Below are positions 25,668-57,432 of a stretch of DNA of 64,000 nucleotides, in pieces (positions within the stretch are counted from its first letter, which is position 1; each line of letters opens with the position of its first letter). Position numbers and translations under genes: made by a program. The notes under the pieces were generated by a model, which was not told the origin of the DNA, made no database searches, and was given only the letters and a program-made list of their open reading frames with translations. Origin of the DNA: Arenicola marina (taxonomy: Eukaryota; Annelida; Polychaeta; Arenicolidae); assembly GCA_964019135.1 (NCBI GenBank), contig OZ025258.1, positions 10,373,961 through 10,437,960 of the forward strand, given 5' to 3'.

Positions 25668-25731
25668 TCACGTGTCCATTGTCACTCGGACCTGATTGAC
25701 TTGCTTCACGAGATCTGCGATATCGTCACCC
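25668..25731 (-). CDS. NUP88: NUP88 last coding exon with stop
   Basis: The acceptor is ttttcag (25732-25738). The first base completes a glutamate codon from the previous exon. It encodes [20 protein letters not shown], then TGA at 25668-25670. The vertebrate protein ends with a similar E-G-(x)4-MVKQINDIR tail a few residues from its C-terminus, which supports both the family and this stop. Confidence 0.9.
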
Positions 25732-28700
25732 CTGAAAACGAAACAAACAACAAGTTCTATAAATGATCAACGCGTCAGTTACTTACGCCTAATAATTTCC
25801 ACTGCATTTGCCTGGTTGGTTGGTTGAGTTGAAAGATGCTAGTACATGTAAGGTCATGTCGTGGCAATGGCAGGTGTCAAAATATCCCTGTTCTACTTAC
25901 GCTGGGGTCTGACTGAAGTTAATGAATAGGATATCTTGCCTCTTCTGATTACACGAAGGTCAATGACAATAAGTACACATAACAGTTACGTGGTCAGGGC
26001 GATAAAAGAGTCGTTTGGTGAGAGTCACGTGATCAGAGTGACCTCAAGGGCCACGTGATCAGGGTGACTATAAAGGCCGTGTGGTCATGGTAACTACAAG
26101 GGTGACGCGGTCAGGGTGACTATAAGGGTCGGCGTGGTCCGAGCGGCTATGAGAGCCGCGTAGTCAAGGTGACTATAATGGTCACGTGGTTCGAGTGTCT
26201 GTACCGGCCACGTGGTCAGGGTGATAAAAGGGCCACGTGGTCAGGGTGATAAAAGGGCCACGCGGTCAGGGTGATAAAAGGGCCACGTGATAAAAGGGCC
26301 ACAGGGTCCGGGTGATAAAAGGGCCACAGGGTCCGGGTGATAAAAGGGCCACAGGGTCCGGGTGATAAAAAGGCCACAGGGTCCGGGTGATAAAGGGCCA
26401 CAGGGTCCGGGTGATAAAAGGGCCACAGGGTCCGGGTGATAAAAGGGCCACAGGGTCCGGGTGATAAATGGGCCACAGGGTCCGGGTGATAAAAGGGCCA
26501 CAGGGTCCGGGTGATAAAAGGGCCACAGGGTCCGGGTGATAAAGGGCTACAGGGTCCGGGTGATAAAAGGGCCACGTGGTCCGGGTGATAAAAGGGCCAC
26601 AGGGTCCGGGTGATAAAGGGCCCACGTGGTCATAAATCACGAAGTAACGATTAGTTTAACGATCACGTGGTCAGTGAGCCACTCACTCTTCCTTCAGCAC
26701 ATTCCGGAGCTGTTCCATCTGGTTCTTGCTGAAGTGAGTTTTACGCTGACTTTTCGATTTCTGTTGCTTGACTTGTCTCTCTTGATACTCCTGTTTAACT
26801 TTCAACTGAAAAACAAACACGAAAAAAAATCAACAAGGCTACAACACACTGAACGTGCAAACCGATAATCAACATGTAACGCAAGAATAAAACTGTACAG
26901 ATTTACAGTACAAAAAAAACAACGCTTTCAACAAAATAATTCGATAAATTGTCCAGACGTTTTTCATCCCATTCCCTTTTTTCCTGTTAGCGCTGACGCT
27001 CATATAGGGATGTAGCATGTACAGTACAAACCTGCTTTATTGTGGCCTGGAAGTACTTGAGTTTCTCCTCTATATCCCGGAGCTCTCTGTGCATGTTCTT
27101 CTCGGCGTCCGAGGAGCTCGGCAAGCGGGACTGAATCTTCTTCAGCATAGTCTCCGTCCTGAGGGAAAAGCACGGCATGGTTGACATTATAATAGTTGCC
27201 ATTATAAAGGTTGACATCATAATGATTGCCATAGTAATGGTTGTGATAATAATAGTTTACATTATCATGGTTGACATTATAATGGTTGACATTATTATGG
27301 TTGACATTATTATGGTTGACACTATTATGGCTGACATTAGAAAGGTTGCCATTGTATATGGTTTCTATAATATAGGTTGCCATTATAATGGGTGACGTTT
27401 CAATGGTTGCCACTTTAATGGTTGCCATTGTAATGGTTGCCATTGTCATGGTTGACATTGTAATGGTTGCCACTGTAATGGCTGGGGAGGCCGGGAAGAC
27501 TGGGGAGGGTGGAGAGGCTGGAGAGACTGAGGGAGCTGGGGAGGGTGGGGAGGCTGGGGAGACAGGGGAGGCTGGGGAGACAGGGGAGGCTGGGGAGACT
27601 GGGGAGGCTGGGGAGACTGGGGAGGCTGCGAAGGCTGGGAAGACTGGGGAGGCTGGGGAGGCCGGGGAGACTGAGGAGGCCGGGGAGGGTGGGGAGACTG
27701 AGGAGGCCGGGGAGGGTGGGGAGGCTGGCGAGGCCGGGGAGGCTGGGGAGGCCGGGAATCTGTGAAGACCGGGGAGGCCGGGGAGGCTGGGGAGACTGGG
27801 GAGTGCTGGGGAGACTGGGGAGACTGGCGAGGCCGGGGAGGCCGGGGAGTCTGTGAAGACCGGGGAGGCTGGGGAGGCTGGGGAGACTGGGGAGGCTGGG
27901 GAGGCCGGGGAGTCTGGGGAGGCTGGGAAGACCGGAGAGGCTGGAGGGGCTGGGGAGACTGGGGTGGCTGGGGAGGCTGGGGAGACTGCGAAGGCTGGGG
28001 AGGCTGGGGAGGCTGGGGAGTCCGGGGAGGCTGGAGGGGCTGGGGTGGCTGGGGAGGCTTGGGAGGCTGGGGAGACTGCGAAGGCTGGGGAGGCTGGGGG
28101 AGGCTGGGGAGGCCGGGGAGTCTGGGGAGGCTGGGGAGGCTGGGGAGGCTGGGAAGACCGGGGAGGCTGGAGGGGCTGGGGAGACTGGGGTGGCTGGGGA
28201 GGCTGGGGAGACTGCGAAGGCTGGGGAGGCTGGGGGAGCTGGGGAGGCTGGGGAGTCCGGGGAGGCTGGGAAGAACTTGGGGGGGGGGGAGGGGGAGGCT
28301 GGGGAGGCTGGGGAGGCTGGGGAGACTGAGGAGGCCGGGGAGGCTGGGGAGGCTGTGGAGACTGAGGTGGCTGGGGAGGCTGGGGAGGCTGGAGGGACTG
28401 GGGTGACTTGGGTAACTTGGGGGGGGGGGGGGATGCTGGGGAGACTGGGGAGGCCGGGGGGACTGGGAAGACTGGGGTAACTTGGGGGGGGGGAAGGGGG
28501 AGGCTAGGGAGACTGGGGAGGCTGGGGTCGATGGGGAGGCTGGGGAGGCTGGGGTGGATGGGGAGGCTGGGGAGGCTGGGGGGGTACCTGGACACGATCT
28601 GCTGCTGCCTGTCCTTGGCGTCCTCGTACTTCTCCGCCAGGTCTCGGGTCTTGTCGGTCAGGATGTTCTTGGCGTGCATACACTGGTTCAGGTCTTCCTT

Positions 28701-56300: not shown

Positions 56301-57432
56301 TGGGGACAACTGACGACCGGGGGTGAGGACAACTGACGACCGGGGGTGGGGACAACTGACGACCGGGGGTGGGACAACTGACGACCGGGGGTGGGACAAC
56401 TGACGACCGGGGGTGGGGACAACTGACGACCGGGGGTGGGGACAACTGACGACCGGGGGTGGGGACAACTGACGACCGGGGGTGGGGACAACTGACGACC
56501 GGGGGTGGGACAACTGATGACCGGGGGTGGGGACAACTGACGACCGGGGGTGGGACAACTGACGACCGGGGGTGGGGACAACTGACGACCGGGGGTGAGG
56601 ACAACTGACGACCGGGGGTGGGACAACTGACGACCGGGGGTGGGGACAACTGACGACCGGGGGTGGGGACAACTGACGACCGGGGGTGAGGACAACTGAC
56701 GACCGGGGGTGGGGACAACTGACGACCGGGGGTGAGGACAACTGACGACCGGGGGTGGGACAACTGACGACCGGGGGTGGGGACAACTGACGACCGGGGG
56801 TGAGGACAACTGACGACCGGAGGTGGGACAACTGACGACCGGGGGTGGGGACAACTGACGACCGGGGGTGGGACAACTGACGACCGGGGGTGGGGACAAC
56901 TGACGACCGGGGGTGAGGACAACTGACGACCGGGGGTGGGACAACTGACGACCGGGGGTGGGGACAACTGACGACCGGGGGTGGGGACAACTGACGACCG
57001 GGGGTGGGACAACTGATGACCGGGGGTGGGGACAACTGACGACCGGGGGTGGGACAACTGACGACCGGGGGTGGGGACAACTGACGACCGGGGGTGGGGA
57101 CAACTGACGACCGGGGGTGGGACAACTGACGACCGGGGGTGGGGACAACTGACGACCGGGGCTGGGACAACTGACGACCGGGTGTGGGACAACTGACGAC
57201 CGGGGTTGAGGACACTTGACGACCGGGGGTGGGACAACTGACGACCGGGGGCGGGGACAACTGACGACCGAGGGTGAGGACAACTGCCGACCGGGGGTAG
57301 TGACAACTGACGACAGCGGGTGAGGACAACTGACGACCGGGGTTGAGGACAACTGACGACCGGGGGTGGGGACACCTGACGACCGGGGGTGGGGACAACT
57401 GACGATCGGGGGTGCGGACAACTGACCACGGG
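53365..57432. repeat. 23-bp G-rich minisatellite, about 175 copies, in a NUP88 intron
   Basis: Units contain gacgaccgggggtggggaca plus act; 22-bp units lack one G. At the left (53365-53830) the array is composed of mixed, older variants (gacaattgacgaccgcgggt). In the middle a 547-bp block is duplicated (units around 54141-54400 recur around 54688-54947). The right (55640-57200) is the most uniform. Each unit carries a five-G and a four-G tract on the plus strand. The long minus-strand frames (VVSCPHPRSS repeats) are artefacts of the stop-free unit. Confidence 0.97.

What the first reader, a model, noticed from the sequence alone, without database searches (positions are those of the whole stretch)
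25668..57432. NUP88: nearly every intron carries its own unrelated minisatellite
Between NUP88 exons I see arrays with units of 25, 15+9, 42/44, 24, 36, 34 and 23 bp, none obviously related to another. About 87% of visible intron length (roughly 23 of 26.4 kb) is tandem repeat, while the exons (1019 bp) are intact and conserved. The arrays seem to have arisen independently, since unit sequences differ. This suggests a local or genome-wide tendency to generate minisatellites in transcribed DNA. The exon calls rest on established NUP88 homology; the mechanism is inference.
Basis: partly seen in the sequence, partly recalled or inferred. Interest (0 to 1): 0.72.

Follow-up and report, generated by a model that had tools for sequence, protein, structure and literature searches.

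The report
Private minisatellites fill annelid gene introns
Most introns of this worm's NUP88 gene are filled by tandem repeats unrelated to one another, but the repeats look just as common in the rest of the genome sampled, and in some genes the repeated unit is a copy of the exon-intron border itself.

Summary
Confirmed almost to the base: exons 7-15 of NUP88 total 1,019 bp, and introns 7-14 are 23,220 of 26,413 bp (87.9%) tandem repeat. Exons 6 (part) to 15 join into one open frame collinear with residues 348-736 of a solved NUP88. Units are private: four searched genome-wide have no close copy elsewhere. The locus is not special: fourteen 10-kb stretches at one fixed coordinate on fourteen contigs are 48.9% tandem repeat, five of them at least 80%; non-exon DNA of five other genes is 32%. 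So the tendency is genome-wide, with no sign that genes are favoured. Such junction-spanning arrays occur at 6 of 104 splice junctions examined, in 4 genes. They resemble amphioxus "mirages" (PMC3087553, passages) and show that these arrays copied neighbouring single-copy host DNA. Caveat: the 18.6-kb array holds an exact 7.7-kb internal duplication, possibly an assembly artefact.

The parts
25668..25731 (-). NUP88 exon 15 (last, with stop)
   Evidence: acceptor read from sequence; joined open frame; protein match
26026..26631 (.). 25-bp array in intron 14, degenerate at its edges, homogeneous core
   Evidence: TRF; identity along the array; only two weak (73-74%) places elsewhere in the genome
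26687..26805 (-). NUP88 exon 14
27032..27158 (-). NUP88 exon 13
27177..28581 (.). 15-bp then 9-bp arrays filling 98% of intron 12; the 9-bp array starts a few nt after the exon 12 donor
   Evidence: TRF; donor context
28588..28734 (-). NUP88 exon 12
   Evidence: Pfam Nup88 hit
29372..48019 (.). 42/44-bp array, 433 copies, in intron 11
   Evidence: TRF; copy analysis
31291..39015 (.). stretch repeated exactly 7,664 bp downstream (38955-46679) inside the 44-bp array
   Evidence: self-comparison: seven consecutive 1-kb blocks 100% identical
48121..48243 (-). NUP88 exon 11
   Evidence: Pfam Nup88 hit
48868..49014 (-). NUP88 exon 10
49023..49441 (.). 24-bp array in intron 9, ending 8 nt from the exon 10 acceptor; only its own locus matches in the genome
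49891..49998 (-). NUP88 exon 9
50039..50149 (.). 36-bp array, 3 copies, intron 8
50485..50569 (-). NUP88 exon 8
50951..52940 (.). 34-bp array, 59 copies, intron 7; all 16 genome matches of the query fall in this array
53000..53098 (-). NUP88 exon 7
   Evidence: Pfam Nup88 hit
53354..57437 (.). 23-bp array, about 180 copies, intron 6
58298..58641 (.). 37-bp array, intron 6
53099..64000 (-). part of NUP88 intron 6 inside the window. Its 5' end lies beyond the window, at C11:10438458-10439805, where a 35-bp unit repeated 38 times carries the last 23-24 nt of exon 6 plus the donor GTAACC

Best explanation
These are ordinary members of a genome-wide population of locus-private minisatellites in an annelid. 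At many places a short stretch of local single-copy DNA (units mostly 20-50 bp) has been tandemly duplicated, then amplified and homogenised inside the array, most likely by replication slippage and unequal exchange. Each array therefore carries its own unit. Arrays are removed by selection where they break exons and tolerated where they do not. They fill introns and other DNA alike. They may even start across a splice junction if one edge copy remains a working junction; the unit then contains exon end plus donor, or acceptor plus exon start. Shown here: density in the sample, privacy of the units tested, junction-spanning units, largely intact decoy donors, and an exact 7.7-kb duplication inside one array. 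Inferred: the slippage and unequal-exchange steps, selective tolerance, use of the edge copy of the junction, and that arrays away from junctions also began from local DNA.
For: Background density: 48.9% of 140 kb from fourteen 10-kb stretches at the 5.0-Mb coordinate of contigs C1-C14 (range 1-100%, 5 of 14 at least 80%), and 4,045 of 9,000 bp from nine 1-kb stretches at 20 Mb of C1-C9. Non-exon DNA of five TCP1-family genes: 13,535 of 41,861 bp (32%; sums). Privacy: only four pairs among 74 arrays share three or more unit 11-mers, none of them a convincing shared unit at two loci; the 34-bp and 24-bp units match only their own locus, and the 25-bp and 35-bp units have only 69-77% matches elsewhere. 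Direction of copying: at six junctions the unit contains 17-42 nt of a conserved coding exon, so the exon is the source and the array the copy: NUP88 exon 6, two donors and one acceptor in the C17 TCP1-family gene, one donor each in the C8 and C11 genes. Array dynamics: homogeneous core with degenerate edges in the 25-bp array, and an exact internal 7.7-kb duplication in the 44-bp array. Use of the first donor: the exon 6-7 join aligns collinearly with solved NUP88, and reading past that donor meets a stop.
Against: 10 of 11 NUP88 arrays tested show no significant similarity to their neighbouring splice junctions, so junction origin is shown for only a minority and the seed of most arrays is not identified. 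The background sample is 149 kb of 867 Mb, with wide spread between stretches, at two fixed coordinates, without annotation. No reads, RNA or second haplotype were available, so neither splicing nor copy-number variation was tested. The 44-bp unit could not be scored genome-wide, and the 9-, 15-, 23-, 36- and 37-bp units were not searched genome-wide. Why this genome produces so many arrays is not explained.
Confidence: 0.75

Rival explanations
1. Array formation is targeted to splice junctions or transcribed DNA, for example by R-loops or transcription-coupled breaks, and intron arrays grow outward from exon edges.
For: In all seven NUP88 introns that hold an array of 100 bp or more, some array edge lies within about 100 nt of a splice site; distances follow from array coordinates and exon coordinates. 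Six of 104 junctions are spanned by arrays and four more are abutted; 5 of 56 donors against 1 of 48 acceptors are spanned.
Against: Genome stretches taken at fixed coordinates are at least as repeat-rich as the interiors of the five other genes. Six in 104 is far below the roughly one-in-two chance that a base of the sample lies in an array. Only 1 of 11 NUP88 arrays tested resembles its junction. Short introns put array edges near exons anyway; no formal test of edge distance was run.
Confidence: 0.12
2. The arrays are largely assembly artefacts: false tandem expansion or haplotypes laid end to end.
For: The 44-bp array contains an exact 7,664-bp-offset duplication over about 7.7 kb.
Against: Copies within arrays differ (28 distinct of 39 copies in the 35-bp array, 48 of 180 in the 23-bp array). 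Arrays of hundreds of bp, short enough for single reads, occur in many loci.
Confidence: 0.06
3. The arrays derive from transposable elements or a dispersed satellite library that inserted into introns.
For: Many satellite families in animals are dispersed that way (recalled). The 35-bp unit has weak 69-77% matches in one array region on C2.
Against: Units tested are private, and six arrays demonstrably copy the host exon next to them.
Confidence: 0.05

Closest known systems
[quoted passage not shown] Adh3, globins, TnC, PGBD5; passages of PMC3087553 and PMC3902484)
   Same: The unit spans an exon-intron boundary and repeats splice signals; both donor and acceptor sides occur; unit lengths overlap (Adh3 10-72 bp as quoted in PMC3087553; about 29-82 bp here).
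   Different: Annelid, not cephalochordate; more copies than the amphioxus globin case (6 and 3 units in BflGb6) with 38 at NUP88 exon 6 and about 40 at L029; three in one gene; embedded in a genome of which about half of the sampled DNA is tandem repeat. Splicing and somatic instability were examined in amphioxus, not here.
Ordinary intronic minisatellites (VNTRs; recalled)
   Same: Units of 10-60 bp, locus-specific, variant copies, homogeneous core with degenerate edges.
   Different: The fraction of sampled DNA and of introns occupied is far higher here than is usual in animal genomes (the comparison is recalled, apart from one earthworm genome with 2.65% minisatellite, PMC12130307).
Earthworm metallothionein intron-1 repeats (Lumbricus rubellus, Eisenia fetida; PMC12783039, passages)
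   Same: Annelid; tandem array in an intron; called minisatellites by the authors.
   Different: Monomers there average about 180 bp and are alike in two species and two gene copies; here units are short and private. Junction copies were not mentioned in the passages read, though exon duplications in one clone were.

Membership tests
Minisatellite | Head-to-tail units of about 10-100 bp with variant copies | tested here: met
   (the 9-bp array is just below the usual range)
Minisatellite | Copy-number polymorphism between alleles | not testable with these tools
   one assembly, no reads or second haplotype
Mirage (amphioxus type) | Unit contains an exon-intron boundary | tested here: met
   Met at 6 of 104 junctions, including NUP88 exon 6; not met for 10 of 11 NUP88 arrays tested
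Mirage (amphioxus type) | Normal mRNA splicing despite duplicated splice signals | tested here: inconclusive
   Only indirect: the exon 6-7 join gives a frame collinear with solved NUP88; no RNA
Mirage (amphioxus type) | Somatic length instability | not testable with these tools
   no reads
Dispersed satellite or transposon-derived repeat | Same unit at many unlinked loci | tested here: not met
   for four units searched genome-wide; the 44-bp unit could not be scored
Introner element | Near-identical new introns inserted at many genes | tested here: not met
   No convincing unit sharing between loci among 74 arrays

The most novel reading that the evidence does not exclude
In this annelid lineage, roughly half the genome is a continually renewed population of locus-private minisatellites seeded from local unique DNA. 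Junction-spanning arrays (about 6% of splice sites) place tens of intact decoy splice sites beside constitutive exons. They would be a standing source of new exons and introns, and a natural test of how the spliceosome picks the first of 38 near-identical donors.
Probability: 0.4. Interest if true: 0.68.

Novelty: new member of a known kind. Interest (0 to 1): 0.5.

Why it matters
The NUP88 introns alone are ordinary for this genome. Two wider points matter. First, a genome in which about half of the sampled DNA is private minisatellite is a good place to ask what controls minisatellite birth and growth, because the junction-spanning arrays show which sequence was the seed. Second, exon-boundary duplications known from amphioxus appear here in a distant phylum, with up to about 40 copies and several in one gene. 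That suggests the phenomenon follows from a high rate of minisatellite birth and is not peculiar to cephalochordates. The repeated intact donors make splice-site choice and intron gain by tandem duplication directly testable.

Tried and rejected
Junction origin for all NUP88 arrays: my first impression was that the 34-bp and 44-bp units copy the nearby donors (GTTAGTT, AGGTTG). Local alignment against each array's two neighbouring junctions, with 17 other junctions and 300 shuffles as controls, rejected this for 10 of 11 arrays; only the 35-bp array scored beyond every control (46 against a maximum of 16). A twelfth short array (19 bp, 85 bp long, upstream of exon 6) was listed in that script but not tested.

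Selection against decoy donors inside the arrays (four donor arrays): the exon 6 array keeps GTAACC at 0.96-1.0 against a unit mean of 0.90; in the first L029 array and the L032 array the donor bases sit near the unit means, apart from single positions at 0.91 and 0.82. In the second L029 array, which abuts its junction, the T of GT is at 0.74 against a mean of 0.89, so a weak effect there is not excluded.

Species identification: mitochondrial gene order fits the annelid ground pattern (gene order read; the pattern itself is recalled). Papers were searched for a matching assembly without success. An entry in my notebook calling it a 14-chromosome nereid-like genome is wrong: C17 and C18 are also 38 Mb.

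The 44-bp unit could not be scored against the whole genome.

Literature: the original amphioxus Adh report was not held under the id I tried, which was from memory; what I say of it comes from passages of PMC3087553 and PMC3902484. Three searches for annelid or polychaete minisatellite papers (with 15 of 19 listed, 56) gave two earthworm papers with relevant content; I read passages of both. Searches (12 of 90 listed; 9 of 9) were seen as listings only.

Full report
WHAT WAS CHECKED. The window lies at C11:10373961-10437960 of an 867-Mb assembly in 762 contigs. The mitochondrial contig (15,942 bp) has the twelve protein genes I could recognise on one strand, in the order COX1, COX2, COX3, ND6, CYTB, ATP6, ND5, ND4L, ND4, a gap where the rRNAs would lie, ND1, ND3, ND2 (genes named by me from the open frames). 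I recognise this as the annelid ground pattern (recalled). The species was not identified.

GENE MODEL. The Pfam Nup88 profile hits eight exons on the minus strand. Reading splice sites in the sequence gave 15 exons, nine of them (7-15) in the window; the edges of exons 1-5 and the acceptor of exon 6 were not all pinned down. Exons 6 (part) to 15 join into a 396-residue open frame with a single terminal stop; exons 7-15 total 1,019 bp. The product aligns with residues 348-736 of the Nup88 chain 7r5j_W0 (E 4.1e-89; human is recalled) and with Pfam Nup88 (E 1.9e-107).

ARRAYS. Introns 7-14 hold 23,220 bp of tandem repeat in 26,413 bp (87.9%; reader 87%). Two of these eight introns hold none. The whole gene span is 64.7% repeat, because introns 1-5 and about half of intron 6 are ordinary DNA.

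IS NUP88 SPECIAL? I took 10 kb at the 5.0-Mb coordinate of each of C1-C14: 48.9% of 140 kb is tandem repeat with period 7 or more, with individual stretches from 1% to 100% and 5 of 14 at 80% or more. Nine 1-kb stretches at 20 Mb of C1-C9 gave 4,045 of 9,000 bp. Five TCP1-family genes gave 13, 48, 32, 15 and 46% of non-exon sequence; this sums to 13,535 of 41,861 bp, counting exons that the profile missed as intron. The first 25.7 kb of the window, outside NUP88, is 41%. NUP88 introns 7-14 are therefore at the high end of a genome-wide condition and are not an anomaly. There is no sign that genes are favoured, though the sampled stretches were not annotated. For comparison, one earthworm genome is reported with 2.65% minisatellite (Amynthas aspergillum, PMC12130307, passages read); the methods differ.

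ARE THE ARRAYS INDEPENDENT? Across 74 non-redundant arrays from the extended NUP88 region and 19 other stretches, four pairs shared three or more 11-mers of their units. One pair is two neighbouring arrays in the same NUP88 intron; the other three look low-complexity. Genome-wide searches found the 34-bp and 24-bp units only in their own arrays, and the 25-bp and 35-bp units elsewhere only at 69-77% identity. The 44-bp unit could not be scored; the other units were not searched genome-wide. The tool warns that its DNA search skips very common words, so a miss is not proof of rarity. The median period in the sample is 34 bp.

WHAT SEEDS AN ARRAY? The array at C11:10438458-10439805, 0.5 kb beyond the window, has a 35-bp unit consisting of the last 23-24 nt of exon 6 and the first 11-12 nt of intron 6, about 38 times over. 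Reading past the first donor meets a stop, and the exon 6-7 join at that donor is collinear with solved NUP88, so the first donor is presumably the one used. I then looked at 56 donors and 48 acceptors. These were 14 + 14 in NUP88 (for exons 1-5 only the absence of any TRF array near the exon edges); 22 + 21 in L028-L032; 20 donors in L042-L061; and 13 of 14 acceptors in L062-L075 (L072 dropped because the acceptor is not in it). Arrays whose unit contains 17 nt or more of exon: NUP88 exon 6 donor, L029 first donor (17 nt by reading the printout; the script printed 0 there because its period range stopped short of 35), L032 third donor (33 nt by reading; the script says 37), L049 donor (24), L052 donor (42), and L066 acceptor (36). 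That is 6 of 104 junctions: 5 of 56 donors and 1 of 48 acceptors, in 4 genes. Four more arrays begin or end at the junction with 0-5 exon nt: the L029 second donor, the L061 donor, the L067 acceptor (4 nt) and the L068 acceptor (two copies).

These six prove the direction of copying: the conserved coding exon is the source. They do not show that junctions are preferred. Of 11 NUP88 arrays compared with their own junctions, only the exon 6 array exceeds the controls. Six in 104 is also far below the chance that a base of the sample lies in an array, as expected if selection removes most arrays that hit exons.

HOW ARRAYS CHANGE. The 25-bp array has a homogeneous core and degenerate ends. The 44-bp array contains a stretch of about 7.7 kb repeated exactly at an offset of 7,664 bp (31291-39015 and 38955-46679). 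This is what a very recent unequal exchange would leave, but an assembly error would look the same. If false, the array is about 11 kb, not 18.6 kb. In three of four donor arrays examined the decoy donors are about as intact as the rest of the unit; in the fourth, which only abuts its junction, the T of GT is less conserved (0.74 against 0.89).

KNOWN RELATIVES. Tandem repeats of intron-exon boundaries were named mirages in amphioxus and described in Adh3, globin, troponin C and PGBD5 genes (passages of PMC3087553, and PMC3902484). They were proposed as a route to intron gain, and normal splicing was reported. The present arrays share the defining feature. My searches for annelid or polychaete minisatellite papers and for minisatellite intron-gain papers listed no annelid mirage by title or opening of abstract; only listings and a few passages were read.

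VERDICT. As a NUP88 finding it is ordinary for this genome. The more interesting content is the genome-wide abundance of private minisatellites and the recurrent copying of splice junctions.

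Noticed in passing
window 4886-12571: A 7.7-kb array of a 28-bp unit (275 copies) with strong strand asymmetry (GC skew about -0.6), outside NUP88.
   Followed up: no
window 13151-14986: A 47-bp array, 39 copies, 95% matches, also outside NUP88.
   Followed up: no
window 61.8-64.1 kb, intron 6 of NUP88: A direct duplication with an offset of about 1.19 kb: nearly the same open frames appear twice in the minus-strand listing, and TRF shows the same 22-bp array at 61897 and 63092.
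   Followed up: no
L056, L072, L075 and window about 29110-29180: tRNA-like stretches (for example GGTGTAGTGGTTAGCGCACTAGACC...GGTTCGAATCC in L072), which look like a dispersed SINE family (recognised by eye).
   Followed up: no
C17:26057474-26073106 (L047-L052, L063-L068): One TCP1-family gene has two donor-spanning arrays, one acceptor-spanning array and two more arrays touching acceptors.
   Followed up: partly
   Followed up: no
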